Source: Gavia stellata (lineage: Eukaryota > Chordata > Aves > Gaviiformes > Gaviidae). Taken from it: 64,000 nt of DNA. The position numbers and the translations under genes are program-made. The notes beneath the pieces were generated by a model. It was given only the letters and a program-made list of their open reading frames with translations. It was not told where the DNA came from and made no database searches. The stretch spans positions 24,249,943 to 24,313,942 of the forward strand of contig NC_082600.1 of the NCBI RefSeq assembly GCF_030936135.1. Reading direction: 5' to 3'. Positions 4,923 to 64,000 of the stretch are shown piece after piece (the stretch's first letter is position 1; each line of letters begins with the position of its first letter).

Positions 4923-4930
4923 TGACGTCA
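4923..4930. promoter_or_regulatory. Consensus cAMP response element (CRE)
   Basis: The full palindromic CRE TGACGTCA lies 58 bp upstream of the TATA box, so about 90 bp upstream of the expected start site. Mammalian DIO2 promoters are known to carry a functional CRE at a comparable position, which drives cAMP and cold/adrenergic induction. The match in sequence and spacing makes this a strong candidate for the same element. Confidence 0.85.
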
Positions 4931-4987
4931 AGATCTTTACTAAGATTAGGGTTTCATTTCTCTATTGCAGCAATTAGCTAGGGAATG

Positions 4988-4994
4988 TATAAAA
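4988..4994 (+). promoter_or_regulatory. DIO2 TATA box
   Basis: TATAAAA sits about 655 bp upstream of the DIO2 start codon. A start site 25-30 bp downstream would fall near 5015-5020 and give a 5' leader of about 630 nt, close to the long leader known for mammalian DIO2. The CRE 58 bp upstream supports this as the core promoter. Confidence 0.8.
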
Positions 4995-5255: not shown

Positions 5256-5616
5256 ATGAGGGGTCTGTTCAGTGCTTAAATAGCTGAGAAACAATGGGAT
5301 AGTGCAGGAAAGTTAAAAATTAACAGCCTCAGCTTAAATTTTGTAACTGCTGGGAACTGGAAACACAGCTGCCTCTCTCTTCAACAAAATCAGGTCTCCT
5401 GGTTAAGGGAAGAATTTTTGTTAACGTCTTAGTTTCTGAAAAATAAGCAGCTCTGAGTTGAATGAGTATCACGCAGTTATGGTTTTACCCAGCCTGCTCA
5501 TATTCAACTATCTCTGCTCATTTTAAAGAGAGCGGCTGAGAGAGGGGTAAGGAGGCTTTTGAAATGCTTTTTACTTTACTTTTTAAATGAGGGTACAGAG
5601 CAAAAAAAGGAGCTGA
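5256..5616 (+). promoter_or_regulatory. Cluster of six upstream ORFs in the DIO2 leader
   Basis: Six ATGs precede the DIO2 start, each closed by a stop before it: 5256-5279 (7 codons plus stop), 5294-5302 (ATG GGA TAG), 5462-5539 (25 codons), 5479-5526 (15 codons, nested in another frame), 5564-5590 (8 codons) and 5587-5616 (9 codons). The last two overlap as ATGA, the stop of one lying on the start of the next. The 25-codon uORF has T at -3, a weak context. Upstream ORFs are known to repress translation of DIO2 mRNA in other vertebrates, and that is the inferred role here. Confidence 0.75.
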
Positions 5617-5648: not shown

Positions 5649-5870
5649 ATGGGTCTGCTAAGTGTGGATTTGCTGATCACGCTTCAGATCTTGCCGGTCT
5701 TTTTCTCCAATTGCCTCTTCCTTGCGCTGTATGACTCTGTGATCCTCCTGAAGCACATGGTGCTATTTCTGAGCCGGTCTAAATCTGGGCGCGGTGAGTG
5801 GCGGAGGATGCTGACCTCGGAGGGGCTGCGCTGCGTCTGGAACAGCTTCCTCCTGGACGCCTATAAGCAG
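5649..5870 (+). CDS. DIO2: DIO2 coding exon 1 (type 2 iodothyronine deiodinase, N-terminus)
   Basis: This exon encodes residues 1-74 of type 2 deiodinase, the selenoenzyme that removes the outer-ring iodine from thyroxine (T4) to make active T3. It starts MGLLSVDLLITLQILPVFF, with a strong start context. Residues about 9-35 form the hydrophobic N-terminal segment that anchors the enzyme in the ER membrane with the catalytic domain facing the cytosol. A basic linker (SRSKSGRGEWRR) and the conserved LLDAYKQ follow. The exon ends at CAG followed by the donor GTGGGT, in phase 0. The open frame runs on to 5918 inside the intron but loses similarity to the family at the donor. Identity is very secure from the N-terminus and the join to exon 2. 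Confidence 0.97.
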
Positions 5871-6067
5871 GTGGGTACACGGCGATGGGGATGGGGACGG
5901 GCAGGTCGGGGTGGGTAAACTGTGATGAACATCCCTGTTGTCAACGGAGTAGGGAAGGGAATGACTCTGTGCGGTGCAGACTATCTCCTATTCGATGTTG
6001 TGTGTGATGGGAGAGGTATAAACTGAAAGGAGCGGTACTTTTAAGTCAGGGCTAAGGGTTCACGAGA

Positions 6068-6215
6068 TTCAGGAGCTGCTCTGCCACTAACTCGCTGTGC
6101 AGCCATGGCCATGTCACTTAGTTTAGCTGTACCTCAGTTTCCCCACCAGTACGAATAATAATCTTCATGTTTATAAAGTATTTCAAGATCTTTGTGTGAT
6201 AGTAATTGTAAAATA
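6068..6215 (+). repeat. MIR-like SINE relic
   Basis: The clearest MIR-like copy in the window. In order it reads GCTCTGCCACTAACTCGCTG, a degraded GTGACCTTGGGCAAGTCACTTA equivalent (GCCATGTCACTTAG), CTGTACCTCAGTTTCCCCA, then AATAATAAT and a TATAAAGTATTT tail. All parts are in consensus order on the + strand. MIR/CORE-SINE copies are ancient and rare in birds, so survival here is noteworthy. Confidence 0.75.
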
Positions 6216-6629
6216 CTCTAGATGTTTTCACAGCTGTTGTTTAATTGTTTGCCATGTGAGATCCTCAGAGATTATACGAAGACTGCATCTTCAAATAGAG
6301 CTCTACATTGATGGACATCATCTATGTAACATAGAACTGTTTTAATTAGAGTAAAAGATAGAAATGAACCTTTGTCATTACACTGGCATTTTCTATTACT
6401 TATATGTTAGTTTTTATATTGGAGGAAGCATCCAGGTAATAGTAAAACTGTGCACAGAGTAAACCAGCCTTTTTTCTTCATGAAATCAGTGACAGAGGGA
6501 CATGTCAGAGGTTAAAAATGAACTTGACTAGCTGAGCGACAGCTGCCTGGTGATTTAAGTTAATAAAGCCAATAGCAGTTATGCAACATGTACTTTTTTT
6601 TCCTTTTAAGTTTTGTACAAACATTACCC

Positions 6630-6785
6630 AGTGGTACTGCCCAGGTCTCATGAGGTAGTTATAGTTCCCTTTTATAGATTGAAAAGGTGGACCCAAAAAG
6701 ATTAAATTTCTTGCACAGGCCACCCAGTTAGTAAGTAGAAGAACTGGATTCAGAGCTCTGTGGCTTCCAAAACAGTGCTTAGTCT
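6630..6785 (-). repeat. MIR-like SINE relic
   Basis: This follows the reverse complement of MIR: CCCTTTTATAGATTGAAAAG (for CATTTTACAGATGAGGAAAC), then TTAAATTTCTTGCACAGGCC, CACCCAGTTAGTAAGTAG, AACTGGATTCAGAGCTCTG and GGCTTCCAAAACAGTGCT. The order is intact and divergence is moderate. Confidence 0.7.
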
Positions 6786-7261
6786 GTTAATGTGTTGTCT
6801 TATTTAGACCATCTAATTTAACATATGCCATGTGATGTCATGAGGTCATAGGGGTCCTATCCAAATGATATCTCTGCATCTTCTGAAATATTTCTTTTTG
6901 TACCACCTTCCCCCCAGTCCCCTTTTGCTCCCCCACAATGGCTTTTGTATTTGCTCTTACCTAGAGATGTGAAAAGTTGGTGGTGCTGGTGTTTGCTGGC
7001 TTTGTGATACGGGATACAAGCTGCTTAGCCTGAAACCCAAGCCACAGGGACATTAATTTTCAGTGCAAGACAAATATAAATAACATCAGCTTTTGCCAAA
7101 TGGGTCAACCTCTTACTGCCACCCTAGGAATCAGCCAGCTGGCTACTCAAATAAAGTAATGCTGAATGAAGCTCACTATTCTCCTAGCCCTTCTAGTTTC
7201 TGGTTTTAGTCTCTTCACATACATTAAGTAAGTAAATTTTACAGTGGTCTTGTTAAATGGG

Positions 7262-7380
7262 CTGGTGAACACAATTGTTCCCATTTTACAGCCAAGGTAA
7301 GGCAGGACAGTTAACACATGACTTGGTCAAGGCTCCGGTGGAAGTTGGTAGCATGGCTCTGAAACAGCCAAGTTTCCAGT
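7262..7380 (-). repeat. MIR-like SINE relic
   Basis: Reverse-complement MIR core: TTCCCATTTTACAGCCAAGG, ACAGTTAACACATGACTTGG, TCAAGGCTCCGGTGGAAG and GGTAGCATGGCTCTGAAA in consensus order. It lies about 500 bp after the previous relic in the same orientation. Confidence 0.65.
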
Positions 7381-8377
7381 TCCCACATTTGCAACCTCTA
7401 TGTGGCCCAGTGTCCAGAGAAGGTGTGGAGGAACCTTATATCCATGAGATATTTTCAATCTCATTTTGCTTAAATAACACAAAGTGATTTAAAATAAAGA
7501 TGTCGCATGCCTTTCTGTACTTTCCCAAGTCATACTTTGCCTTTTCCTTAGTACTGTTGATGTCAACCATGGAAGATACAGGGAGGATGACTCTGTGCTA
7601 TTTTTGGTGTTGGCAATGAAACTCACACCCTGAACTTTGGTAATTAAAAACTCTCCCTTATCACCATTAAATGACCTCGGTTGTTCAGGCCAATCAGCCT
7701 TTAAGGTCTCTAGAATGAATCCTGGGCCTCAATGAACTCAGCAAAAAAATGCATATAAACTTAAGCAAATTTTATCACCTTGTTCTAAAAAGGGGAGAAA
7801 ATCCATTCATGCCAGCTATCCTTAAGATGAAACTAATTGACCAACAATTCATGGAAGGACTCTATTTTCCTTAGTAGAATTATGGGACATAAGGACAGAA
7901 GATTATCAGAAACCTTGATTGTCACAGAAAGGTAGATAAGTGTAGAAATCAAATTGTAGAGGGGACACAATAAACTGAGGAGCAATATTAGGAGAAGAAG
8001 AGTCATCACCTCCACAACAGAGGAGAAACTTCTGCTGCTTCTGTAAGGAAGAGAAAGAAACAAAAGTTTCAGCTGGAAAGCTGTACTGGTAGAGTTGAAA
8101 AAAATTGAAATATACCCTGCTTTGTGGCATGTTTAAAAAGCATCAGAAATAGTGAAATATATTAAAGACTGTCCCATAAAGCATCTTTTTCCTTAAATTA
8201 TCTTCTAAATCCTGAATAGGACTGCCCAGTTGTGATATCTTAATCTTAGCCAATTAGTAAGGGTAGGAAATGAAAATGTTATTGAATCAGGGTACTAAAC
8301 AGCATGGCAAAATGCAGTTGATATCATAACAGTGATTTTTTTATTGCTCGCACTTGCTAGCTGAAGTCAGGTATTAG

Positions 8378-8420
8378 CAAAGTACTTAAGCAGGTGCTTA
8401 AGCTCATTCTATTGAGGACT
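8378..8420. repeat. Ancient amniote repeat fragment (TTAAGCA-type)
   Basis: AGTACTTAAGCAGGTGCTTA followed by GCTCATTCTATTGAGG resembles a degenerate element common in bird and reptile DNA, built around TTAAGCAYRTGCTTAA and a 'cattgacttcaatggga' motif. I do not know a secure family name. Related pieces lie at about 15.5, 44.4 and 60.5 kb. Confidence 0.45.
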
Positions 8421-9351
8421 ATTTATGAGATAATCACCATTTTCCAGCTAGCATAGGAGAATTGCAGATGTCTGAGATATACCAAAGCTAGACTGCCAGT
8501 TAGCAGAAGACTGGATTAAAGCAGTAACTATGCTTGGTTTTACTATGTTTTGTGTCACTTATGCAGAACTCTTCCTGCGTACATTTCATAACATTTTTCA
8601 CAAAAGTACTTGATGTAAAATTTCTATTCACAGAAAAATTTACTGGATGCCATTCCAGAAAAACTGTGGGTAGTTACTAGATTTGGGATTAAAGTAAATT
8701 TATTACAAGAAAGGAGCTCTGCCTTGAAAGCGCACAGACTGTCCCAGAATTAAGTGACTTTGTTTCCAGACTAGTGTGTACAAGATATGATCTTGGAATA
8801 GTTAAAGTAGAGTATATTTGAAAATAGCTATTCTGATGCATTTTCCCTTCTAGAAAAGCTTTTGAATGTCTTACTCAAATTTCAAGTTTCTTTTGTTCTG
8901 CTTTTTGTTGTTATTAAGTATTATTGCACATGACTTTTGGGTTAGGGCAATTATTTCATAGGCAAGATTACCTTATTGATATTTTGTTTATTTTTATTTA
9001 CTTATGTAAATTTTATCAATGATTAATATATTTCTTTTTACTTCCTTAGCTCCGAGTTCAGTATCTGTCACACTCAGTGTTGATATTGCCTACACTGCAC
9101 AAGCTTCGTGATTTACAGAACATCCTCTCCCTATTCTTTTCTGAGAGGCAAGCTTGTCTTACATTACAACAAGGGAGTCTTTAGGACCAGATTAATTGTC
9201 ATAACAGAGATAAATAGAACTAGTAGTCAAGTTAGATTAACTTTATATAATTGAAAAAGTGCAGCTATTTTATTTAAATGTTATTTTTCTAATTTACTGT
9301 TGTGCTCTATTTATCTACAGAAATGAGTGGCTTGATTCCTGAAGAGCAAAT

Positions 9352-9595
9352 CATGTATGTATGTGTGTGTAGGTATTTACACTTTTGTATGTGTTTGTAT
9401 GGATACCGATATACCTAAGTGTGTGTATCTGTCTCTATATATGTACATACATATACGTGTATGTGTGTAAAGGCAAATACACACACATAGGCATACATAA
9501 TCTGCTCTTTCAGGAGTCAGTCCTCTCTCATTTCTCTGTATATGTATACACATATATATGTGTATGTATACATATGTATAGATATGAATGCAACC
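9352..9595. repeat. TG/TA alternating microsatellite cluster
   Basis: About 240 bp dominated by imperfect (ATGT), (TG) and (TATA) runs, broken by short unique pieces. It contains a perfect 20-bp palindrome at 9546-9565 (half-site ATACACATAT). Alternating purine-pyrimidine sequence of this kind can form Z-DNA or cruciforms. The open frame through it is a low-complexity artefact. Confidence 0.85.
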
Positions 9596-10976
9596 ACACC
9601 TACTGATAAGAGAGAAAAAACAAAAGAGATTTTTGGGAGGGTGTTAGTGTGCCTTCTGCATGATTTATATAGGCCATCTGTACAAATGCCAGTGAGGCAT
9701 TTGTTTTAGCCCACAGCATGAATACTGAATGTGTCACATATCTTACAGAAATCCAGAGAAAGACCTAGAGAGTTTTGAAAAAACATTGTACTTACTTTTA
9801 AAAGCTTTTTTTACTTGCTAAGTTCCATGCTTTATTTAGCACTGGGATGAATCTGCTTTCTAAGATTCCAAAGATGAGAAATTGTTATCTTAAAATGCTT
9901 TTAAAATGGGTAAAAAAAAGGTTGCACCCATTAGCAGTGCCCAGTGGTAAGGCCTCGTGCTGGGGGCTTTTCCAGTGCCAGATATGAGCTTTGTGTTTCA
10001 GCAATGCAAAGCTACCATTCCTGGTCTCTAGCAGAGAGCTGTAAGGTTATCCTCTTCTCCACCTCAGTGCAGGGTAGTTAGGGAGAAGACCTTCAGGCAT
10101 CTCCCTGAAGCAGCCAAATGCTTAGGAATGCCGTAGTACACCTATGGGGATAACATGCACGTGTGCATGTATGCACATGTGTGTAAATGTACGCTACAGC
10201 CCTCAAAAGGATGCAGCTATCTCAAGCGATGGATGATGATGGGTGTGTGTATGTACTTGTACAGCTTTTTACTGTCTTAGAACAGGCCAGCAGCAAGCTC
10301 TGGCATGACAGACCCAGCACGGAGGGAACGGTTGGCACAGGATCCCAACTTCACAGCATAGGCCCAGCTCTGGATGTAGCAGCAAGTAGACTGGTTCAGT
10401 AAACACCCAGTGGGGTTTTCCTGAGATTTCAGGGAGGCACAATTAAATTATCTTTGGCTACTTCTGCCTGCCTGATAGGCACATTATTTATTCTTAAAAT
10501 GAATCAGTATGCAAAGCAGGACAGCCTGAAAACTGTCATGTTGAGTGCATGTTGCACAGCATTATCACAAAGCTATATGTGAGAGTAATAGAATGGCGTG
10601 ATCCTTTACCTGCTGTTTGGCTGTCCAGTAACTCTTTACTTTTTGGGGAAATCTTTTAAAGGTTGGAACAAAGACATAACCTCTATACTTATTATTTGTA
10701 TTTATTGTGTCTGGCAAGGTCTCTCTCTGCATTTGAGAGAGATAAAGGGAATTTGTGAAATAGAGCGTGTTGTATAGTTTCAAGGTTTAGAACTAGACAT
10801 TGTGTGGTATTAAAAATATTTTATTGGTTTTACAAAGTTCAGCCTTAGCAGAATTGTTTTCATTGACATTTGCAAATGAAAACAATCTTGAAAGAAGTGA
10901 GAAAAACAAAACAAAACCACAATTTAAACCTTTCCTGCAGTGTTTGGAACATAAATTCAACAGGATTTGGGCTTGT

Positions 10977-11016
10977 CATTGTCATTATTATTAAAACATT
11001 GTCATTATTATTAATA
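10977..11016. repeat. 20-bp tandem duplication
   Basis: Two adjacent 20-bp units beginning CATTGTCATTATTATTA (10977-10996 and 10997-11016) differ at a single base near the end. A simple local duplication. Confidence 0.9.
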
Positions 11017-11037
11017 TATAATTATGTTTGTTACAGT

Positions 11038-11170
11038 AGTGTCTGAGGACCAACCTAGACCAGGGACCCATTGTACCAAGCAGTGTCCTAAACAAGAGGA
11101 GCAGACAGTTTGTCCCACGGAGCTTACAGTTCAAACACTCAAGACAGACAAAGGGTAGGAAAAGGAATAT
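11038..11170 (+). repeat. Ancient amniote interspersed repeat
   Basis: The order GGGACCCATTGTACCAAGCA, GTGTCCTAAACA, GAGCTTACAGTTCAAACACT and AGACAGACAAAGGGTAGGAA resembles an old repeat frequent in reptile and bird genomes ('cattgtgctaggcactgtacaaac ... gagcttacaatct'). I recognise the pattern but cannot assign a family name with certainty. Confidence 0.5.
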
Positions 11171-12879
11171 GACAACTCCTCTCCCACATGGGGTCTCATC
11201 CTATCCGTTTCATTTTGCAGATCTAACTTCACTTCTTTCACACCACCTCTTTGCAGTCTTCCTTTTTCACCCTTACGTGCGAAAAACTGACTGAAAGGAC
11301 TGCTTGACTTTTTGTCAAACCCTTGTGAAAACCCTCTTCAGCTGTGGTAGACACGGAAAATAAGTTAATGGGCACCACCCAAGGAAAAGGACCGTACCCT
11401 GTCCTTGTGTCCCAGCTCTGCCTCTCCAATAAAACCACTACTGTGCATTCATACAGTGCTAAAGCTGAGAAAAAAAAACAAACAAAAAATCATCTAAATT
11501 AACTTCAAATGTCCTCCAGGTGCTGACTAACAAAGACTGGTGAAGGCCTCTGTCACCTGTGTCCGCAAGGGCAGCCGGTGGCCCAGAGGCCATGATGTTG
11601 TAGGCCATGCTCCCATCTTGAGGGAAACATAAGCCCTTAAGAAGCTTGCTGTAGGCTCCCTGATTAAGAGGAACTAAAATTATCCATTTTCTTTTATAAG
11701 AGTGCAAGGCAAAACTCTCCTCTATGCTTTCCTCTGCCGTGCATGCTCATTTGTGGGAGTGGCAGTTTTTAAAGAGAGCAGCATTAGACTGGTTATTTTT
11801 ATCTGGACTCTGCCCTTTTAATTTGTCTCTCACTTCCCACCCTCAGCTTCACACACCTGATCCTAAGTAAAAGACACTGGACTCTGGGAGAACTTGAGTC
11901 AATTCCAAATTCCAGGCTCTGCTCTCCAATTTGAGTCACTGAGTCTCTTAAAGCAAGCTGCCGCCTCCCCATGACAAATGAAGCTCCCACTCCTGTATGC
12001 CACTCCAGACAAGGGCCTCCTATAATTTTTATCCACTGCAGAACTCTGGGTCATGTAAATAAAGAAAACAAAAATAATAATTTGTATAATTCTCCTGCCA
12101 GAGTCTGATTATGATTTGGATGAAGCACTGAGAAATATCAGGCTGTGCAGAGTCTATATTTAGCTGAACGGGATCAAATCAAATCAAAGTAGAGAATTTG
12201 AAAAGGAGCAAAAAGCTCCAGGGATTCAGTTCATTACCAATCGCTGGACTCCAGTCCCGAACACAGCATGTCCATATTTCAGTGGCTAATATCACAGACT
12301 GCTAATTGTCTGGCAACACCTATTTTCTTTAGGGGGTTGACACAGCCTGATGAGTCTGCCAAACTGTTTGAAAATCCCTCATGCAGGGAGTGAAAGCTGT
12401 ATTCCAGTGCAAAGGATCCCAGGAGGGTTGTGCTAAAGCTGATAAAAGCAAAATGAGAAAAAAGAAGAGGTAAATGAGAAGGAGATGTTTTGTCCATGGG
12501 GCTTTTCCTAGTCCTTATGGAGAATGTACAACAAAGTTAGCAGTATGTTCTATTTCTAGCCTGTAGTTTATGAATAGGGCTTTATTTCCCGCTCCTAAGT
12601 CTCCTTCATTTTGCAGTCTGCGTGCTAAAGCATCAGCAACCTTGTTCCCTTTTCACTCTGTGTGCAGACTTGGAGAAGGAGATGCAGTACCAAGGCTGTC
12701 AAGCAAACACAAAATTCACACAAATGATGCAAGTCACTGCTTTGGTGTTGGGCTGGTGCTTGCTCTTGCTGATGGCCGGGCTGGCTCTCAGATTTGGTTG
12801 GCCTACCTTGTGTGTCCCAGGCAGGCTGCATGGGAGGGGGTGCCTGTGCGCTGCCCGGTTTCCACCTCATCCAGAAGAC

Positions 12880-13470
12880 TGGCGCAGAATGCCCAAATAT
12901 TCACGCACATGAGTACGTGATTATAGAAATGCTGGATCGCGTGTGAGGGGAATTCTGCTAGTTTGTTTCTCAGAATTTATATTTTGCCTGCCTTTGTGTA
13001 AGATTTCAAAAGCGGTTTGGCTGAATACATGGGGTTTTTTGTTTGTTTTCTCATTGCGTTGATTTTCTTTTCCAAGAGCTATTTTTTCTTTCAATAAATA
13101 ACAACAAAGAAGACAGCCAAGGCCTACAATGCAGATGATCAGCAAGGATGATATTGTCATCCTGTGTCAATCGGTTCCCGAGCCTGGTGAAATAAAGAGT
13201 CCCTTTGGGAACGTCAGCGCTTCATCAAGACCAATTAGTGGAGATGCCGCTGCTTATGTTTAAACATTAACGACTGGGCAGGGCTGCTTTTTGGAGTGCC
13301 TGACACTGGCATGGAACAAGGCACCGACCTAATTACTCCTCTACAAGAGCAGAAAACGCCTAGTGAATGCCTGCTTGGCAAGGATGTCTCATTAAGGGGA
13401 AAAAAACCCAACACAAGCACTCCTAGAAACAAAAATTAAAATGATAGGTAACCTGCGGCCGTGAGACTTA
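12880..13470. promoter_or_regulatory. CpG-retaining intronic block, candidate cis-element
   Basis: At least fifteen CpGs lie within about 590 bp of otherwise CpG-depleted intron, including CGCGTG near 12939, CCGAGC near 13180, ACGTCAGCGC near 13211 and TGCGGCCG near 13455. No repeat or convincing coding frame accounts for it. CpG retention plus ATTA cores (for example GACCAATTAGTGG near 13228) is typical of conserved noncoding elements, but conservation was not tested. The enhancer reading is inference. Confidence 0.3.
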
Positions 13471-14026
13471 CTTCATGGCTGTGGGAAATGAAAAGAAACT
13501 GCTATAAGGTTATGTGGGGCATATTTGTACCTATTTTTTGGTCAATAAGGTATATGAGAGACAGAATGCAAACTTGCATTGTTGGAGAACAGTGAAATAC
13601 GTTGCCACCCTTGGTATCAATGTTAAATAGTACTTGAAGGGCACTCCCATGCTGGTGTTTGATGGGCATTGTTGTGTTGGTCTGTTCCTTCAGGGTTTGC
13701 AAACTTGCCTAGGAAAAGAAGCATTTGGTAGACCTGAGTGAAGAGTTGGTAATGAGGAGCTTACAATATGTAGCCTCTCTTTCCGCTTAAATATGATCAA
13801 GAAGCAAACTGTGGTTTCCCAGTTCAAGAGTGTTGGTTAGAGTATTTTCAGTCATAATAGTTTTGTTAAAACAAAACCAGAAGAGTGAGGGGAAACAGCT
13901 GCTCAGATGTTTCTTGTCTCCTGAGCAGCTCTGTTCATTGCTGAGTTTTAGTTTCTATCCTTTTAACCTTTATTTGTCTTCTCCTCTGAAGAGTGCCAGC
14001 AAATATTAGAAATCGAAGTGTGTTGC

Positions 14027-14064
14027 TTTTATTACTTCTATTATTACTATTATTACTTCTTTTC
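14027..14064. repeat. TTA-type microsatellite
   Basis: Imperfect (TTA/TTACTA)n tract of about 38 bp. It explains the leucine-rich open frame across it, which is not a gene. Confidence 0.85.
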
Positions 14065-15077
14065 TATGACTGGATGAGCGCACACTCCAAAATACTGAGG
14101 TCCATTATTCATCCAGGGAGTGGGTGCAGCACAGATACTTACATGTCAGGCTTTGCCCAAAAGGCACATTTTGGGCAAGCTAGCTCTGAAATAGCATTTG
14201 CTTGGTAGTGCAAGAACAGTTAAGCTTTCTAGGTAAAGAGGGATCTAGTGTTTGTGCAGATGTGCAGATGTTGTGTTTCTTGAGATGTGCCCTTTTTTGG
14301 TAGTTACCAACTTACCACAAAATGCTGAGTTGTCTGGCTGGCTTAGGGATTGAATGCAGCCCTCAGGATGATTATAAGGCCGCCACGTGATCTTGACCTG
14401 TGTATTTCTTTGCTCAAGTCTGGCCCTTTACCTTACTCAGTCCTGCTTTGCCTATCTTACTGCACAGAATGGCAGAGAGAAATGAGATGTGCAACAGCTG
14501 CACAGAAGAGTACCTACTACCTGCTAAGTTATAGGTGGTCTGTAGCACTTCTTAAACACTGCAAGATGCTTAATGCTACTTCTTAAATGCTACAGCCTGT
14601 GTCTCTGGGCTTGCCTCTCTCCAGATAGATACTTTTCTCTCAAAAACTGGGATACAGCTCTTCTCCTTCCTTGAGTTCAATGGACAGGCCACTCACACAG
14701 CAGGTCCTAAACTCAGCTATTTCAAACCTCGCTTGCTTTCAAAGGCAAATGAGCACAAGGCTTGTTTTTTTAACTGTTACCAGGGCTGTAGCAGATAGCA
14801 ATGCTACAGATGCAGGTTTACGGGATGGGGTGCCACAAGGGGCTGTGCTTTCCTGGGGCATCACTTGCTTCCCTTGCCTGTGATGCAGCTGCAGCTGCAC
14901 ATGCCCTACTCCCAGTGGTGTGATCACTATGTGCTTGGCCTGGAGAGATTTGTGAGTCTCGGGCAGTCTTTCTGTGGCTCTCTTCTTTGCTGATCTCCGA
15001 GTGAATGGCAGCACAGTTGTGTCTCTATTTGCCCCATAGAAAATAGTCAAAATTATGTTTATATTGTGTGCCAACAT

Positions 15078-15127
15078 GCTGTGAGACCATCTCATGTAGC
15101 TGTGAAACCATCTCATGTAGCTGTGAA
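15078..15127. repeat. 21-bp tandem repeat, about 2.4 copies
   Basis: Two copies of a 21-bp unit starting GCTGTGA and ending CCATCTCATGTA (15078-15098 and 15099-15119) differ at one base, and a partial third copy follows. Confidence 0.9.
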
Positions 15128-15465
15128 GTCTGGCAGCTTTAAGGACAGTGTCTTAGAAACTTTGCTTTGGTTAGAATCTTGCTTCTGTTGCTATTCTGAT
15201 GAAATAATGCCGAGTCATAAATAACTGTAGATTTGTTCAAGGTAGTCAGGTTTCTCAGGGAGAAATGGAGGATCCCGTACCTACAATATACTTGCCTCTG
15301 GATCTGTGTGTAGCAGCAATTGCATCAGTTGAGTATTCAGCTGTTAACTCAGCTTCTTACTGTATCTGACTCGCCAGGATACCTTGTAATGTAGAATAGA
15401 AGTGCACCAAAAATCAGTTATTTATTATTTATTCAGTTTTTACACAGTTCTCATTCAGCATTAAC

Positions 15466-15546
15466 TTCTATTGACTTCAATTGGAGTGTAGCTTCAGAGA
15501 GAAATATATAAAATATGACATAAAGACTTCAGAATTTGGCCCTGTA
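15466..15546 (+). repeat. Ancient amniote repeat fragment
   Basis: TATTGACTTCAATTGGAGTG followed about 45 bp later by GACTTCAGAATTTGGCCCTG resembles the bird/reptile pattern 'cattgacttcaatgggagtt ... ggacttcaggatttggccct'. No family name is secure. Confidence 0.45.
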
Positions 15547-15859
15547 CATTTCCTTCAAAGCAACACTTCTGAACATGATCAAATATGCAGGAGACAGAGA
15601 GAGATAGAAAGTGTCAGGAAAATACAAAAGGATAATTGCATTGTTGTACTGGAGCTTGATGTTAAAGGCAGATACATAAGAATTGCTGTGGCAGAGCTCT
15701 TTGAAAACTGTCTTATGTAATAGTATTTTGTGGTTCTATAGCAGTTATCAGCTAAGGATCTTGGAGCCCTCTGCAGGCTCCACCTTATTCTGGCAGTCCC
15801 TTCTGTGAGATGCTTATATTCTGTCTTTTTTCTATAGGCAGGGAAATAGAAATGGTCAG

Positions 15860-15925
15860 GCAAAATGACTTTTCCACAATTGCCTGTTGGGTCTGAGTTA
15901 GATCTGGGGTTAGAGCTGAGAACAG
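15860..15925 (-). repeat. MIR-like SINE relic
   Basis: AAAATGACTTTTCCACAATT followed by TGTTGGGTCTGAGTTAGATC and GGGGTTAGAGCTGAG parallels the reverse complement of the MIR core (TGACTTGCCCAAGGTCACAC ... GGATTAGAACTCAG). Confidence 0.45.
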
Positions 15926-16264
15926 TTTGTTTTCACTTCATCCTACTTCGACCATCATATAAACTTTCCCCTTTTCCTGCTGCTTTTCCCCCAATCATCT
16001 TCTAGAGAAACATTGCAGTAGAAGGAAATGTGTCACTCAATTACTGATAAAATTACTGCAAAGTGGCTAGAAAACCCTTTGGAGAGCGCAGTCTTGGATG
16101 GTCCACTGTCAAAACAGAATGATATATTGAGTGGGCATCTGCAGAGATCTTTCTTGTGTTTGCCATTCTGAGTATTTTCATTCTTGGACTGCAGGATGAA
16201 AAAGAATATACATGTATGAAATCTGCAAACCTCTCAAAACTGAGAGGCACTGCATGTGTTGTGA

Positions 16265-16830
16265 AGATCGGGAATACAATGCGGAATGATTTTGGAGAAT
16301 TGGAAAAATGGCTTGAAATGTAAGATGCAGCTCAATGGGGCCAAGTGCAGAGCACCCAATTCAGACTGGACTGATGAAATACCCAAATCCATGATGGGGA
16401 GCAACTAGAAAGGCAGAAAAAGGGACCTAGTCATTATAACTTCTCACTAGCTAACCCCTAGTCAACAGTCTACTGTTTTTCCAAAACAGTCATGATGTTT
16501 CATGAAAAGCAAACATCTGGAATGTATAAACAGGTGTAGCCTGTGAGATACATGAAGTAATTGTCTGATTATTCTGAGAATTAGTAAAAACTCTTTTGAG
16601 GATTTGAACACTGCACTTCAAGGAAGATGTGAACCAAGTGGAGAGAACTCAGAGGATGGCAGTGAAAAAAAAGTCTGGAAAATTTGGCTCACAGAGAAAA
16701 GTTAGAAGAAATTAGAGGTAGGCTGTCTGAAAGCAAATTAGAGTCTGCAAATACATAAGGGTGGACAGGACTATGTGTGTAGTAGACAGGACAAGACAGA
16801 TCTCAGATCAAATTTTCTAACAATAATGAA
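16265..16830 (+). repeat. Decayed CR1/L3-like LINE fragment
   Basis: The fragment keeps the order of the 3' part of a CR1/L3 reverse-transcriptase ORF, though it is riddled with stops and indels. A 'CTCAATGGGGCCAAGTGCAG' segment (the NEAKC motif region) lies near 16332, AAAGGGACCTAGTC (the RDLG region) near 16420, GTCTGGAAAATTTGGCTCAC near 16673, AATACATAAGGGTGG near 16749 and GACAGGACAAGACAG near 16786. It ends about 235 bp before DIO2 exon 2. It is far older than the two recognisable CR1 copies downstream. Confidence 0.6.
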
Positions 16831-17064
16831 GTAGTATACCTGTCAGGAATGTCACATTTCCCTGCATTGTGAGTGGGCATGGTCTAGACGAACTTTTGAA
16901 GCTGCTGCTTTTGATGATTTGCTGTATCTCCATGCTATTGTCCATGCGGGTAATTAGGAACTTTTTTGAACAGGTGACTCTATTTATTTGAAGAGAGTAG
17001 TCATGAGGATACTGGACAAGCAAGTCACACTAACTTGCTATGTTTTAATTTGTTTTGCCATCAG

Positions 17065-17682
17065 GTCAAACTGGGAGGAGAAGCCCCAAACTCCAGTGTA
17101 ATTCACATAGCCAAGGGCAGTGATGGCAGCAGTAGCAACTGGAAGAGTGTTGGTGGCAAGTGTGGAACCAAATGCCACCTTCTGGATTTTGCCAATCCCG
17201 AGCGGCCACTGGTGGTCAATTTTGGTTCAGCTACCTGACCACCGTTCACAAGCCAGCTGTCAGCCTTCAGCAAGCTGGTGGAGGAGTTCTCTGGTGTGGC
17301 TGACTTTCTGTTGGTCTACATTGATGAGGCTCACCCGTCAGATGGCTGGGCTGCCCCTGGAATCTCTCCCTCTTCATTTGAAGTTAAGAAACACAGGAAC
17401 CAGGAAGACCGATGTGCAGCTGCTCACCAGCTCCTAGAGCGCTTTTCCTTGCCACCCCAGTGCCAAGTGGTGGCTGACTGCATGGACAACAATGCCAATG
17501 TGGCCTATGGGGTTTCATTTGAGCGAGTATGCATTGTGCAGAGACAAAAAATTGCCTACCTGGGAGGCAAAGGCCCCTTTTTCTACAATCTGCAGGAGGT
17601 TCGGCTTTGGCTGGAACAAAACTTCAGCAAAAGATGAAATCCATTCTCTACAGAAGCTATATCAACAGATGTGTCCCTTTAA
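17065..17682 (+). CDS. DIO2: DIO2 coding exon 2 (catalytic domain, selenocysteine-containing)
   Basis: Encodes residues 75-279 of type 2 deiodinase, starting VKLGGEAPNSSV after the acceptor. The thioredoxin-fold catalytic domain follows: FANPERPLVVNFGSAT, Sec132 (TGA at 17236-17238), PPFTSQL, then DEAHPSDGW with conserved His164 and FEVKKH with His184 (catalytic-site histidines of the family), and RQKIAYLGGKGPF with Lys236 and Lys243, equivalent to the lysines ubiquitinated in mammalian D2. Residues 91-110 form the variable insertion that confers short half-life; here it is Gly/Ser/Lys-rich. A second in-frame TGA is codon 265. Reading it as Sec adds 14 residues ending TDVSL before TAA; stopping there gives 264 residues. 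The end is drawn at the TAA because vertebrate D2 usually carries this second Sec. Confidence 0.97.
17236..17238 (+). other. DIO2: Selenocysteine UGA codon (Sec132) in the active site
   Basis: The TGA sits in NFGSAT-TGA-PPFTSQ, exactly where all deiodinases have the catalytic selenocysteine. The protein continues in the same frame with full family similarity for 132 further codons. A SECIS element in the 3' UTR supports recoding. Ordinary gene callers would end or split the gene here. Confidence 0.97.
17635..17637 (+). other. DIO2: Second in-frame UGA (codon 265)
   Basis: After NFSKR the frame meets TGA, then 14 sense codons and TAA at 17680-17682. Type 2 deiodinases in other vertebrates have a second UGA at this same place. 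It can be read as Sec or as stop and is not required for activity. With the SECIS present, either outcome is possible. Confidence 0.85.
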
Positions 17683-19617
17683 GGTGATGTAAAAGGGAAA
17701 AAAAGAAAACATATGCTGGTTTGAATAAGGCCTTTCAGATGATTGCAGGAGAACACATTTGATAACAAGGTTAAATGAACATTAACTAGGAAAAGAAAAG
17801 AAAACAAAAAACTAACTCCACAGAAACATTATTGTGTGAAAAAATCCCACTCCTGCACTTGCTATGGGACAGAAGAGGTGAAGAGGCTTCTACGAAAAGG
17901 TGCTGCTGGAGAGCAGGAAGAGTGGTGAGATAAGACCTGTCTCCCAGGAATCTGCCTCATGAGCGTCAGCCCTGGGGTGAGCCAGAAGCGGTTGCCCCAG
18001 AAGTAGTTGCTGCTTGGAACACAATCCATGGAAAGGCAATGCTGTACATTTCATCAGAAATGCTTCTTTACTCTCCTGTGGCCAATGCAAGTGACCTGGG
18101 AGGAGCCAGGGGGCTTGCAATTACTTTGCATAGAAATGCAGTGGAGTGTGGCAATTGTCCTCTCTCTTTATTGTTCAGAGACTACAGGAACTACCATGCA
18201 ATGCATCCTGCAGGCAGACTGGCTGCTCAGATCAAGATGAAACATCGTATGCTGGTATTTGTACTCTCTGTGGATGCCTCTACACAGCATATTAACCATG
18301 TAATTCTATCTAGATGTTTGTATCCAGTATGCAGGCCTGTGCCTGCTGGGAAAGATGTTAAAATCTATGAAGTTGGACCAAAAAGGCAAAGGTGAACAAA
18401 TAAGCCCATTACAATTTGAAAACTAAAAAACCTGGACTATTTGTAATAAAACAGCGAGAATCATCTACAGCGTGCATCATGCAACAAAACTCAGCTGATG
18501 CCAGCCAACTTGGTTCTCTGAGCTGACAACACACATTTATCAATATTCTCTGATTCTCTTCTCTGTTTCTTTACCAGCCTCTCTTTCTGTCTAGCAATAA
18601 GCTTAAAGGTATTTTCATTTTTAGCTTTTTAAAAAAATAACTTATTTCTCTCTTTTATTTTTATTTTATATAATGACCTTACAGATGTATTTTGGGGATG
18701 GGGGAACTTATACACAACTTTACCTCATTGAAATGGAAACCTATCCTGTCAGTTACTCTGTTAAATGTAGTCATGCTGATTTTTGCTATCTTAGATACCT
18801 GCAACTAGTTTATAGCTGCATTAGTTTGTCTGGACGTTAAGTGGTTTGCAGCCTCAGAAGTGATTAACAGCAGTTCTGCTATCAGATGAGCTGAGAGTCT
18901 GTTTCACTCGTGTTCTGAAAAGCCTTCCCAGAGAAACAGGGAGGACAAAGAGTGTGAATTAATGTGAATAAGTGTAAAAGATGGCAGAATTTTCATATTA
19001 ATGGGTCTGAGGAATTATTGATTATGTTTAAAGAGATACTGTCAACTTAGATTATACGTTAGGTTTAGGTATTTCTAAAACTAAAATGACTTAATCAAGC
19101 CTGATGAAAATGCAAGTTTACAGTGAGCTAACCCATTAGAGCTAATAAATGAAAACCCATAAGGAGATGGACTATCCAAGTTTTCTCTCAACTTTGTCAG
19201 AAACATGAAACAGATAAATGGGGTAAGTGGCAAAAATCCAATTAGTTCTTTTAATTTCTCATCCTGCCAGTTGTCAGGAATATGTATTAATACTAACACA
19301 AGAAAGAACAGAAAATACATACATAAATATTTTCATTTTCACAATGTCCCTTTAATATTGTGTATTTCTTTTTGCTTGGATGTTGGTCAACTTAGCCAAT
19401 GTACAAGGCATTTGGAAATGTGTTTTCAAGCACAGATCTGAAGTAATGACAGTAACATGAGTGAATTCTCCCATATTCAGGTTCATGCTTCCCTTCTCAC
19501 ATTTTCCTCCACACACTGTTAAACATATACACACACTTACACAGTTTGGTAACGTGTATCAGAGAAGGGTGTAAAGAATGGTCTTCAGACCTTCTGGTGA
19601 GCCCCACTTCTCAGAGG

Positions 19618-19697
19618 GCATGTGTGTGTGTGTATACGTATGTATGCATATATATGTATATCATATTTTTATGTATGTATATTCATATGCATGCACA
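19618..19697. repeat. TG/TA microsatellite in the 3' UTR
   Basis: A (TG)n run followed by imperfect TATG/TATA repeats over about 80 bp, inside the transcribed DIO2 3' UTR. Confidence 0.85.
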
Positions 19698-19837
19698 CAT
19701 AAGTGGTGTCTAAGACCAATAATAGTAATTATTCTGTCCTCCCATTCATTAAAGTTACTGTAACTCATTGCTCAGTGTGGAAGATTGTTATACATTTTCA
19801 GGACTAACTGGGATATATAACTGAAATTTTTAAACCT

Positions 19838-20040
19838 AGTATCATAGAAACAGTAACATAGACAAACTAAGTGGTTTATTTAATCCAGTGTCCTACCTCT
19901 GACTGTATCAGATGCTTCAGGGGAAGGTGCAATAATTTCTTCTGGATTTTTCATTAGCTTCAGCCCTTATTATTTTTGTCTTGTCTGTGATTGTTGTCTC
20001 ATCATCCCTATGAGAGACTGATCCTGAGTTTTGAGATCTA
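19838..20040 (+). repeat. Ancient amniote repeat in the 3' UTR
   Basis: AATCCAGTGTCCTACCTCTG followed by TCAGATGCTTCAGGGGAAGG and TGCAA closely follows a repeat abundant in turtle, crocodile and bird DNA ('ccagtatcctgtctctgac ... agatgcttcagaggaaggtgcaa'). The remainder is decayed. The family name is uncertain, possibly a CR1-related 3' end. Confidence 0.55.
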
Positions 20041-22030
20041 AATGTTTCTTGAGGCGGAGAATACTAACATAAAAAAATATCACATTTAGGAACAAAGAAA
20101 AACAAATGAAAACAGATTTTTTTTTCAGATTTAAACTGGCTGCTTTTCAATGTCATTCTCATCTCTCGCTCTTGTATGCTAAAAGAGTATAAACAGAAGT
20201 GATCCCAATTTTTCTTCTGTATGTCAGTGATTATATACTCTATATAGAAATCTACACACCTTTTGTTTGTTTCTTAAGCCAAACAGTAATTCACATTCTT
20301 ATACAGGTCCATATTCTTTGCCTGTCTCTGAATCTCTTCTGGTTTTGCTACACTGTCCTTTTACTCAGGTGAGTAAAGCTGTAGACATTACTCCAAGTGA
20401 AAATATGTATTGATATACCCAGCACAACATCTTTTCCTTATTATATCCTATTCTTTGGTCATCTGAAACTTTATTAATCCATAGCAACCCCATAGCCTTT
20501 GTAAAACTTAAACTAATAACTCTTTTCTTCCCTCTTCTTTTCCCCATCATGCAGTTGAAGTCTGAACTGTTTATCCAGGAAATGCTAGCCAAATGTTTAG
20601 CACAGCTGTTGAAACATACCTTTAGCTCGGAGGAGAGAGTCTGAGTTACTAATTCAGTTAGTTAATACCCCTTTGCCTATCTAAAGTTACAGTTATTTTT
20701 CAAGTCCATTTTCTCCTTTTGCATTTACATTATTTTGTCTTGTTATTCTTAGATGCCTGTTCATCACATAGTATAAAGGAATTATAAAATTGGCTCCTGT
20801 AAATGGGAAATCCACAAGGATTTTCCACAAGAAAAAATACACAATAACTTCAGTTCTTTCTTGGCAACATGAATGCATTAGCCTGCCCCAAACTTAAAGA
20901 TAGTTCAGCCTCGCTGATTATCAAGACAGAAATACATTTTGCAAATACTTAATTTTCCCCAGAAAATTTGTGGTCAGAAAGCAGGGGAAGTATTTCAGAG
21001 AGAAATGGGCTTAGAGGAAAAAAAAATCTTTTGTAAGTGGCTGATAGAAATACAAGCTCTTCATTTTTTTGTTGAAAAAATTAGAACATTTTATAGCACT
21101 AACAGTTTTAAATCAAACTTCATGCATTGTCCTTGTTTAATGATAGAAGTGGCCATATGTCAGATACGCAAAATTATTGTAACAGTGGGTTTTTCTGGGT
21201 CCAGGTAGAAATTTTGCTGTCTTGCTAGCATCATACTTCACAATTGGTCTAGTCTGCTGTGAGGCTGGATTTGCTTTGGTCTCTTATTCTCACTCTTTGA
21301 GGGCACTAAACCATATTACTTGAGGTGCTTCAGTGTGACATACATATTGAGCAATAGCTCACAAAATAGGTGCCCAAAAGTATTCTGGAAGGCTACTGTA
21401 TATAAGAAAGACCCCAATACTGTGTCTCAACATTAGTATGGGAAACTTCCAGTACTTTTTGATTTTGAGCAAGCTATTCTGGGCTGTCATTCTACACTGT
21501 TCTGTGTTTAGCATCATTATTTAGCACTGTGTAAAATGAATGTAAAACATTTTGTACAGATGAAAACGATAGCATTTTGCTCTTGCTTGTGTAGACCATG
21601 ACATAAATTTAAGGCAGCAGGAAAACATGCCCTGTCTATTAAAAAGAAAGAAATATATTATGAAATACGTTGTTGAACAACTCTCTGAACACTTTGAAAA
21701 ACAAAATGCAATCATTTTTATGAAGGTGATCTTGGTGGGAAACCCACAAAGCTTCTCAAAAAGGTATCAGTGCTATGCGTTCAGGTGTGTGTGGGGAGGA
21801 AGGTTATGTTTCTGTGTGTGCGAAAGTGACTTTTCTGTGATGTGGTGTATAGGTTTAAGAGTTTTTAAGACTTTCCTTCAGTACTATAACCAAAGCAATA
21901 AGATGTATCAGGCAGGGAATATTGGCCAGTTTTGTTCAACTCTACACCATGTCTGTGCTGGATCTGTATTCAGTGACCTTTGGGCCCAATTTGGAGGCTT
22001 CAGAGAAGAGAGACTGGGGTGAGACAGTGA

Positions 22031-22107
22031 AGGCTTGTGTGCTTATGAAGATCGCTAACAAAAGAGCAATTAACTCAGTTGGCGTTCAGATGCCCTCACA
22101 CTGGCAT
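22031..22107 (+). promoter_or_regulatory. DIO2: SECIS element (form 2) of DIO2
   Basis: All SECIS parts are present. The 5' core ATGA is at 22045-22048 and the 3' core AGAT at 22088-22091, giving the U.U, G.A, A.G, A.A non-Watson-Crick quartet. Helix II pairs 22050-22059 with 22078-22087 (ten positions, one U-U mismatch). Unpaired AAAA at 22060-22063 is the conserved apical adenosine motif. A mini-helix GAG/CTC (22064-22066 with 22074-22076) with a 7-nt loop makes it form 2. Helix I pairs GTGTG 22037-22041 with CACAC 22097-22101 and extends outward, with an internal loop below the core. It recruits SBP2 and EFSec for Sec insertion at the UGA about 4.8 kb upstream. Confidence 0.93.
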
Positions 22108-22319: not shown

Positions 22320-22332
22320 AATAAACAATAAA
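22320..22332 (+). terminator. DIO2: DIO2 polyadenylation signals
   Basis: Two AATAAA hexamers, at 22320-22325 and 22327-22332, are followed within about 15 nt by a T/GT-rich stretch (TCTTTTGTGTCTTCTT). They lie about 215 nt after the SECIS, a sensible end for the transcript. Cleavage is expected near 22345. Confidence 0.8.
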
Positions 22333-46644: not shown

Positions 46645-47670
46645 CAGAGTCTAGCTGGAGGTCTGTAACAAGTGGTGTTCTCCAGGGGTCAGTACTGGGT
46701 CCAGTCCTGTTCAATAATGACCTGTTCATCAATGTCCTGTTCATCAGTGACCTGGATGAAGGGATGGCGTGTGCCCTCAGCAAGTTTGCTGATGACACAA
46801 AACTGGGAGGAGTGGCTGACGCACCGGAAGGCTGTGCTGCCATTCAGTGTGACCTGGACAGGCTGGAGAGTTGGGCAGAGAGGAACCTTATGAAATTCAG
46901 CAAAGGCAAGTGTAGGGTAGTGCACCTGGGGCGGAACAACCCCATGCATCAGTATGGGTTAGGGGCTGACCTACTGGAGAGCAGCTCTGTGGAAAGGGAC
47001 CTGGGAGTGCTGGTGGACAACAGGATGACCATGAGCCACCAATGTGCCCTTGTGGCCAAGAAGGCCAATGGCATCCTGGGGGGCATCAAGAAGAGTATGG
47101 CAAGCAGGTCGAGAGCGGTTATCCTCCCCCTCTACTCTGCCCTGGTGAGGCCCCATCTGGAGTACTGTGTCCAGCTCTGGGCTCCCCGGTTCAGGAAGGA
47201 CAGGGAGCTGCTGGAGAGGGTACAGCAAAGGGCTACGAAGATGATTAGGGGACTGGAACATCTTTCTTATGAGGAAAGGCTGAGGGACTTGGGTCTTTTT
47301 AGTCTGGAGAAGAGAAGACTGAGGGGGGATCTTATTAATGCTTATAAACACTTAAGGGGTGGGTGCCAGGAGGACGGGGACAGTCTTTTTTCAGTGGTGC
47401 CCAGTGGCAGCACAAGAGGTAATGGGCACAGACTTGGTCATAGGAAGTTCCACCTGAACATGAGGAGGAAATTCTTTACTGTGAGGGTGGCAGAGCACTG
47501 GAACAAGCTGCCCAGAAAGGTTGTGGAGTCTCCTTCTCTGGAGATATTCAAAACTCTCCTGGATGCATTCCTGTGCAATCTGCTCCAGGTGAACCTGCTC
47601 TGGCGGTGGGGTTGGACTAGATGATCTCCAGAGGTCCCTTCCAACCCCTGTCATTCTGTGATTATGTGTC
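46645..47670 (+). mobile_element. CR1 LINE, 5'-truncated, 3' end intact
   Basis: The element enters within the reverse-transcriptase domain ([14 protein letters not shown] near 46674) and runs to a typical CR1 end: GGTTGGACTAGATGATCTCC, then AGGTCCCTTCCAACCCC, then ATTCTGTGATTATGTG (a degenerate 8-bp tail repeat). It has no poly-A and no obvious target-site duplication, both usual for CR1. A small internal duplication (CTGTTCATCA repeated near 46721 and 46736) lies just before the ADD motif. It is the youngest-looking repeat in the window. Confidence 0.93.
46671..47624 (+). pseudogene. CR1 ORF2 fragment: reverse transcriptase C-terminal part
   Basis: Open without interruption from the truncation point to TGA at 47622-47624. 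It reads [15 protein letters not shown], then a duplicated segment, then [20 protein letters not shown], in which FADD is the catalytic RT motif. After it come the LNEAKC-like [22 protein letters not shown], the YCVQLWAP motif, [17 protein letters not shown] and the C-terminal [19 protein letters not shown]. The N-terminal endonuclease and most of the RT palm are missing, so it cannot encode an active transposition protein. Confidence 0.9.
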
Positions 47671-62053: not shown

Positions 62054-62832
62054 TCATAGAATCATAGAATCATTTAGGTTGGAAAGGACCTTTAAGATCA
62101 TTGAGTCTAACCGTTAACCTAACACCGCCAAGTCCACCACTAAACCAAATCCCTAAGCACCACGTCTATACGTCTTTAAAATACCTCCAGGGATGGTGAC
62201 TCCACCACTTCCCTGGACAGCCTGTTCCAATGCTTGGCAATCCTTTTGATGAAGAAATTTTTCCTAACATCCAATCTAAACCTCTCCTGGCACTTTCTTC
62301 TTGTCCTATTGCATGTTACTTGGGAGAAGAGACCAACACCCACCTCTCTGCAACCCCCTCTCAGGTAATTGTAGAGAGCGATGAGGTCTCCCCTCAGCCT
62401 CCTCTTCTCCAGACTGAACAACCCCAGTTCCCTCAGCCACTCCTCATAAGACTTGTGCTCCAGACCCCTCACCAGCTTCGTTGCCCTTCTCTGGACACGC
62501 TCCAGCACCTCAATGTCCTTCTTGTAGTGAGGGGCCCAAAACTGAACACAGGATTTGAGGTGCGACCTCACCAGTGCCCAGTACAGAGGGTTGATCACTT
62601 CCCTGCTCCTGCTGGCCACACTATTTCTGATACAGGCCAGGATGCCGTTGGCCTTCTTGGCCACCTGGGCACACTGCTGGCTCATATTCAGCCGGCTGTC
62701 AATCAACACCCCCAGGTCCTTTTCTGCGGGGGAGCTTTCCAGCCACTCTTCCCCAAGCCTGTAGCGTTGCATGGGGTTGTTGTGACCAAAGTGCAGGACC
62801 TGGCACTTGGCCTCGTTGAATCTCAAACACTT
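62054..62832 (-). mobile_element. CR1 LINE on the minus strand, 5'-truncated
   Basis: The 3' end is at 62054, with the CR1 tail repeat (ATAGAATC repeated twice on +). Next comes the longer CR1 3' UTR (AGGTTGGAAAGGACCTTTAA GATCATTGAGTC read on +), then the C-terminal half of the reverse-transcriptase ORF. The 5' truncation falls near 62830, after the LNEAKC-like motif, where a 'GAGGCCAAGTG' word is repeated. It belongs to a CR1 subfamily with a longer 3' UTR than the 46.6-kb copy. Confidence 0.93.
62176..62832 (-). pseudogene. CR1 ORF2 C-terminal fragment
   Basis: Open on the minus strand from the truncation point to a stop at 62176. It reads [86 protein letters not shown] and ends [18 protein letters not shown]. 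The open frame extends upstream of the element to 62931 through unrelated host sequence. The catalytic FADD motif is missing, so no enzyme activity is possible. Confidence 0.88.
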
Positions 62833-64000
62833 GGCCTCAGGTAGATAACAAATATTATATGTTCTATAATAGACGTTATGTGGCTTCCTGCTGCCTATTG
62901 TTAGAAGCATGGAGTAAGGTCTTACATTCAAAAAAATGGCTGATTTACCTGGCTGCTTATGGGATCACCTGGTGTTCACTTATATCCAAAACCACACAAA
63001 TTCTCACAACTCCTGTTCACTTGCTTTAGGTGCTTAAATTTTCCTTAATGAAGTTTTCTAGGAAACTAATGTCTCCTGTTGGTCCTGCCTAGCAGTGCCT
63101 TGAACAGAGGGTCAACAGCACTGGGATCTGAAGTATAGCTGTTCCTTCACCTATATGCTCTATAATGTCTTATGTGAGACATATTCCTGGAATACAGCAA
63201 GCATATGGATCCCTGCACCAAGGTGGATATTTTACCCTACATCCTTTTATCCTGTGACTTAGTCATAGCAGCTGTCACTTCAGAGATGGGAGACTGAGAT
63301 TAATTTTCACTCTGCCTGAGAAGGTTTGAAGCTGCATCTCCCACAGTAATGGTCTGAATATCAGTCAATCAAATATCGTGGGATGAATAATCTCTTTTTC
63401 CCCTTGAAACTGTACCAGTTCAAATAATTGACTGTGAAAATCTGGATAGGGAGAAGACAAGGACTTTACTGCTTCACAATTACAAAACTACAGGGAAAAT
63501 GGGAGAAATATTTTGCTTCAGTTAACCTTATGTGTATATTCACTGAAATTATACAGGCACTGGAACTCAGATCTCCCCTTTGCCAGATGGGTGGCACAAC
63601 CATCTGTGTTTCTGTGGATTTCATAAGAGAGCAAAGGCCCTAAAATGTTGGTGTTGCACAATGCTTGATTCTGGTTGCAAGGGCCAACTACCTTTGATAA
63701 TCTAACACTGACTTTTTGCAATAGCTGGATGTTTTATAGTTAGTAATTATGGAAATTATCTATTATAATTTGCATTTTGATATACTCCATTCTCTTAGGT
63801 GAGTAATGATAGCTCAGGATTTAATTATCACAAATGCATAGCCTTCTTGCCTCTAATTTTAGTCTGTTCTGGTACACCTGTCTCTCATCTGCTCTGCTCA
63901 TCTCAGTTGTGCTATGAATGGAATGTATTTGTCTTCTCTACCTTTCCATTCCTAAGATTTCTGTCCTCTGTGTCAGTGGTTATTTTGTTCTCTGAGCTAT
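62833..64000. other. Gene-free terminal stretch
   Basis: AT-rich DNA with only short open frames (about 70 codons). No repeat family, RNA gene or exon was recognised. Confidence 0.55.

What the first reader, a model, noticed from the sequence alone, without database searches (positions are those of the whole stretch)
17236..22107. Complete selenoprotein recoding unit: UGA132 with its SECIS about 4.8 kb downstream
The sequence shows an in-frame TGA inside the deiodinase active site and a full form-2 SECIS near the end of the 3' UTR. Their distance is far larger than in most selenoprotein mRNAs. Automatic annotation would truncate this gene at 131 codons or call it a pseudogene. Known biology: deiodinases need Sec here, and DIO2 SECIS elements sit far downstream.
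Basis: partly seen in the sequence, partly recalled or inferred. Interest (0 to 1): 0.75.

Follow-up and report, generated by a model that had tools for sequence, protein, structure and literature searches.

The report
Bird DIO2 selenoprotein gene, distant SECIS
This is the ordinary bird copy of DIO2, the thyroid-hormone-activating enzyme that reads a stop codon as selenocysteine using an RNA hairpin nearly 5,000 bases downstream, an arrangement already described for this gene.

Summary
The window carries a complete two-exon DIO2 gene from a 1.32-Gb genome, avian by its nearest relatives (inferred). Exon 1 is 5649-5870; exon 2 starts at 17065. The in-frame TGA is codon 132, at 17236-17238, inside FGSAT-U-PPF. 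A SECIS element passes Rfam's curated cut-off at 22037-22101 (38.6 bits, cut-off 35), 4,801 nt downstream; AATAAA follows 219 nt later. A published survey gives Dio2 the longest 3' UTR and, on average, the longest UGA-to-SECIS distance of mammalian selenoproteins (PMC3316567). Turkey and chicken DIO2 mRNAs with a far-downstream SECIS are also published (PMC4466519, PMC11301063). [quoted passage not shown] The 14-residue tail matches two bird-like sequences at 12/14 and 10/14 residues, against 153/155 and 151/155 in the catalytic domain. That fits UGA265 acting mainly as a stop, without excluding some selenocysteine read-through. Verdict: correct, ordinary, low interest.

The parts
4923..4930 (+). 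TGACGTCA (CRE-like palindrome) upstream of the gene
   Evidence: sequence; function inferred
4988..4994 (+). TATAAAA, candidate TATA box; start site would lie near 5.02 kb
   Evidence: sequence; function inferred
5649..5870 (+). DIO2 coding exon 1 (74 codons)
   Evidence: Pfam PF00837 E 2.6e-21
5871..17064 (+). intron, GT...AG, phase 0, 11.2 kb
   Evidence: of the GT donors tried in 5801-5930 three keep the frame to FGSAT-U; this one places Sec at 132 with an intact exon-1 domain, the others give 120 or meet a stop
17065..17682 (+). DIO2 coding part of exon 2, including both UGA codons and the TAA
17236..17238 (+). UGA, codon 132, active-site selenocysteine
17635..17637 (+). second in-frame UGA, codon 265; main stop or occasional Sec
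17638..17682 (+). 14-codon tail NPFSTEAISTDVSL and TAA
18808..18850 (+). stretch homologous to a published chicken Dio2 3' UTR probe with Musashi-1 sites
   Evidence: alignment score 58; none of 100 shuffled probes reached it, maximum 34; probe from PMC11301063
22037..22101 (+). SECIS element, form 2
   Evidence: Rfam RF00031, 38.6 bits, E 3.3e-4; fold
22320..22332 (+). two AATAAA signals (22320-22325 and 22327-22332), likely end of the transcript

Best explanation
A functional avian DIO2 (type 2 iodothyronine deiodinase) gene. Near the end of the long 3' UTR lies a form-2 SECIS about 4.8 kb behind the active-site UGA. The SECIS recruits SECIS-binding protein and the Sec-specific elongation factor with tRNA-Sec, so UGA132 is read as selenocysteine and the enzyme can convert T4 to T3. 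UGA265 most likely serves mainly as the stop codon. Shown here: gene structure, UGA, SECIS match, poly(A) signals. Inferred from established biology of the family: recruitment, Sec insertion, catalysis.
For: Frame and splice sites. Pfam and solved-structure matches. SECIS over the curated cut-off. The own-genome deiodinase search gives six matches at three places, read as DIO3, DIO2 and DIO1, each with a TGA in the active-site motif. The published chicken 3' UTR probe aligns 1.1 kb behind the coding region. Turkey DIO2 has Sec at 132 and SECIS at 6592-6638 of its transcript (PMC4466519, passages). Mammalian Dio2 UTR and distance figures (PMC3316567, passages).
Against: No expression data. SECIS folding energy is ordinary (z 0.17) and a simple motif scan is at chance level. 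The 3' strand of the SECIS core reads AGAU where the model has UGAU. The SECIS candidates behind DIO1 and DIO3 of the same genome score below the cut-off (29.0 and 25.8 bits). The Sec machinery of this genome was not shown: the best tRNA-Sec match (52 bits) is not called by ARAGORN and has three non-standard acceptor-stem pairs, with 53 of 73,551 candidates scored; the SepSecS and elongation-factor searches did not complete.
Confidence: 0.97

Rival explanations
1. UGA265 is also decoded as selenocysteine to a meaningful extent in birds, giving a 279-residue protein with two Sec residues and a short tail.
For: The same 14-residue tail length follows this UGA in the window and in two bird-like clusters whose W at both UGA positions suggests prediction with UGA read as W (12/14 and 10/14 identical to the window). 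PMC3316567 (passage) cites that the second UGA could take Sec in cell culture when the first was mutated.
Against: The tail changes much faster than the domain (10/14 versus 151/155). P0003, a more distant relative, has an unrelated, longer tail. PMC3316567 finds the mammalian tail not conserved and concludes that UGA2 is primarily a stop.
Confidence: 0.12
2. Proximal poly(A) signals (AATAAA at 18445 and 19144) are used in some tissues, giving mRNAs without SECIS that end translation at UGA132, as a switch on enzyme level.
For: The signals are present; published Dio2 regulation depends on the 3' UTR (PMC11301063, passages).
Against: AATAAA is a six-base motif that occurs by chance in A+T-rich sequence (not tested here); no transcript evidence; a chicken Dio2 mRNA construct runs to nt 6094, well past the aligned probe at nt 2582-2625 (PMC11301063).
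Confidence: 0.05
3. Pseudogene: the TGA is a real nonsense mutation.
For: An in-frame TGA is what a standard gene finder would see.
Against: The TGA sits at the family's Sec position; the frame is otherwise intact to the second UGA and TAA; splice sites are intact; a SECIS is present.
Confidence: 0.01

Closest known systems
DIO2 of turkey (KR528570; PMC4466519)
   Same: Sec at residue 132; SECIS far downstream; the turkey exon-1 forward primer occurs exactly at 5839 of the window
   Different: turkey UGA (974-976) to SECIS (6592) is about 5.6 kb by the table's numbers, here 4.8 kb
chicken DIO2 mRNA (construct 33-6094 nt; PMC11301063)
   Same: long 3' UTR with the SECIS behind a deletable 3.6-kb stretch; the Musashi-1 probe region aligns, 36 of 43 positions identical
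   Different: the GUAGU core inside the probe reads GUGGU here
mammalian DIO2 (PMC3316567)
   Same: two in-frame UGA codons, average 3' UTR 5,174 nt, longest average UGA-SECIS distance of the mammalian set (overall range 207-5,207 nt)
   Different: next stop after the second UGA is 9-21 nt downstream in mammals as that paper states, 14 codons here
DIO1 and DIO3 of the same genome (L003/L004, L001; assignments inferred)
   Same: UGA in the same active-site motif, SECIS candidate downstream
   Different: DIO3 UGA to SECIS candidate about 0.82 kb; both candidates fall below Rfam's cut-off

Membership tests
Iodothyronine deiodinase (PF00837), type 2 | deiodinase domain over the curated cut-off | tested here: met
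   76.5 and 271.9 bits, cut-off 27
Iodothyronine deiodinase (PF00837), type 2 | closer to type 2 than to other types | tested here: met
   PDB type II 9h48 329.5 bits versus type III 4tr3 142.4 bits; those were the only two matches, so type I was not compared
Iodothyronine deiodinase (PF00837), type 2 | Sec codon in the active-site motif | tested here: met
   TGA 17236-17238, codon 132
Iodothyronine deiodinase (PF00837), type 2 | outer-ring deiodination of T4 | not testable with these tools
   needs an enzyme assay
Eukaryotic SECIS (RF00031) | covariance-model score over the gathering score | tested here: met
   38.6 versus 35 bits
Eukaryotic SECIS (RF00031) | AUGA and GA core, A-rich apical bulge, mini-helix (form 2) | tested here: met
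   alignment and fold; core 3' strand AGAU rather than UGAU
Eukaryotic SECIS (RF00031) | lies in the 3' UTR of the same mRNA | tested here: inconclusive
   AATAAA lies 219 nt beyond it and chicken homology supports one long UTR; no RNA-seq here
Eukaryotic SECIS (RF00031) | supports UGA recoding | not testable with these tools
   needs a reporter assay

The most novel reading that the evidence does not exclude
In birds the second UGA of DIO2 is regularly read as selenocysteine, giving a double-Sec enzyme with a bird-specific 14-residue tail that changes stability or localisation.
Probability: 0.06. Interest if true: 0.45.

Novelty: already known. Interest (0 to 1): 0.08.

Why it matters
It is a clean example of long-range UGA recoding and of why automatic annotation often breaks selenoprotein genes, but both points are published. 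The only open question touched here is whether the avian tail after UGA265 is ever translated.

Tried and rejected
Considered and rejected: pseudogene; a chance SECIS (rejected on the covariance score and position, although the simple motif scan and the folding z-score gave no support). Low-score microRNA matches at 19.6 kb (mir-297, mir-466, mir-3149 and others) lie in a TG/TA-rich stretch, are below their cut-offs, and were dismissed. ORFs 18039-18395 and 21627-22022 in the 3' UTR have no Pfam match. A scan of viral contigs for relatives gave none (3 pattern matches, none confirmed). A genome-wide SECIS count failed as a count: one match was listed and the window's own SECIS was not, either because 150 of 26,454 candidates were scored or because it missed E 0.001. 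The tRNA-Sec search was not conclusive. A paper search for a second UGA with chicken and deiodinase found one paper (PMC3316567); a wider one listed 15 of 94 and I opened none of them on this point. PMC9599142 (passages) only says DIO2 is not translated in HAP1 cells.

The sort of 144 relatives is a regular-expression sort: 21 with the motif, 62 with both sides but no motif, 29 with only the later part, 32 other. On looking at the 62 one (P0046) does keep a residue, FGSASWPP, and three (P0028, P0030, P0040) lack only the Sec residue, leaving 58 with a longer gap. The 144 are those listed (120 of 182; 120 of 144).

Full report
What is there. The window lies in a 1.32-Gb genome (G000, contig C7). 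Joining 5649-5870 to 17065 onwards gives a 279-codon frame, counting two in-frame UGA codons, ending in TAA at 17680-17682. UGA at codon 132 (17236-17238) sits in FGSAT-U-PPFT; the second UGA is codon 265 (17635-17637). Both exons match Pfam T4_deiodinase, and the best solved-structure match is type II iodothyronine deiodinase 9h48. The two best protein clusters, P0001 and P0002, are 96% and 93% identical over the whole exon-2 product. They look avian because they share residues with named bird rows such as Uria/Chroicocephalus (P0021) and Ficedula (P0025). That label is an inference.

The SECIS. One Rfam match in the whole window passes its cut-off: SECIS_1 at 22037-22101, 38.6 bits, E 3.3e-4. 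The fold shows a basal helix, the open AUGA/GA core, an A-rich bulge and a GAG/CUC mini-helix, i.e. form 2. Two results do not help: the free energy is like that of shuffles (z 0.17), and a hand-made motif scan is at chance level (3 plus-strand and 2 minus-strand sites against a mean of 2.35 per strand in 20 simulations). The case rests on the covariance model and on the position. The distance from UGA132 is 4,801 nt, and AATAAA follows 219 nt after the SECIS.

Context in the genome. The deiodinase search of the whole genome gives six matches at three places: a one-exon gene (read as DIO3), this one, and a multi-exon one (read as DIO1), each with a TGA in the active-site motif. SECIS candidates also lie behind the other two, below the cut-off (25.8 and 29.0 bits). 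For DIO3 the distance is about 0.82 kb. No second DIO2 copy appeared among the eight candidates scored. The genome's Sec machinery was not established: the tRNA-Sec search was inconclusive and the protein-machinery searches did not complete.

Known biology. PMC3316567 (passages seen): Dio2 has the longest average 3' UTR of mammalian selenoproteins (5,174 nt); UGA-SECIS distances run from 207 to 5,207 nt with a mean of 872, and Dio2 is on average the longest. [quoted passage not shown] PMC4466519 (passages): turkey DIO2 has Sec at 132 and a SECIS at 6592-6638. PMC11301063 (passages): a chicken Dio2 mRNA construct spans 33-6094 nt, with a 3.6-kb stretch between coding region and SECIS that was deleted in one variant. 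A 44-nt probe printed there aligns to 18808-18850 of the window (score 58; 0 of 100 shuffled probes reached it, maximum 34), which supports a homologous long 3' UTR. [quoted passage not shown] My own sort agrees with the first part: of 144 retrieved relatives, 61 lack the Sec residue with sequence on both sides and 11 end right before it.

The second UGA. In three sequences (the window, P0001, P0002) UGA265 is followed by a tail of the same length. Against the window it is 12/14 and 10/14 identical, the catalytic domain (residues 36-190 of the exon-2 product) 153/155 and 151/155. P0003 has a different, longer tail. The tail therefore evolves much faster than the enzyme. Only proteins, no DNA of other birds, were available, so a synonymous/non-synonymous test was impossible.

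Verdict. It is a standard ortholog of a well-studied gene, hence low interest.

Noticed in passing
5256-5616: Six short upstream ORFs (2-25 codons) lie between a candidate start region near 5.02 kb and the DIO2 ATG; [quoted passage not shown]
   Followed up: partly
4923-4994: A perfect TGACGTCA, 57 nt before a TATAAAA, a layout that suggests a cAMP-responsive promoter (function recalled, not tested).
   Followed up: partly
18820-18845: A chicken Musashi-1 core site GUAGU in the published probe reads GUGGU here (18841-18845), while the neighbouring AUUAGU (18820) is kept; GUAGU cores occur at 18003 and 18767.
   Followed up: partly
18445 and 19144: AATAAA signals upstream of the SECIS; if ever used they would give mRNAs that cannot insert Sec.
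   Followed up: no
46764-47624 (+) and 62176-62931 (-): Two related long ORFs (286 and 251 aa, both with DLGVL and [15 protein letters not shown] stretches) that look like pieces of a CR1-type LINE reverse transcriptase (recalled; no Pfam match).
   Followed up: partly
L008:1501-1586: A tRNA-Sec-like sequence at 52 bits with a TCA in the anticodon place but three non-standard pairs in the acceptor stem, possibly a tRNA-Sec pseudogene.
   Followed up: partly
L007:1501-1564 (minus strand): Another SECIS over the cut-off (41.3 bits) on contig C44; its host gene was not looked up.
   Followed up: no
19618-19706: TG/TA-rich stretch in the 3' UTR that raises sub-threshold microRNA-family matches on both strands.
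   Followed up: partly
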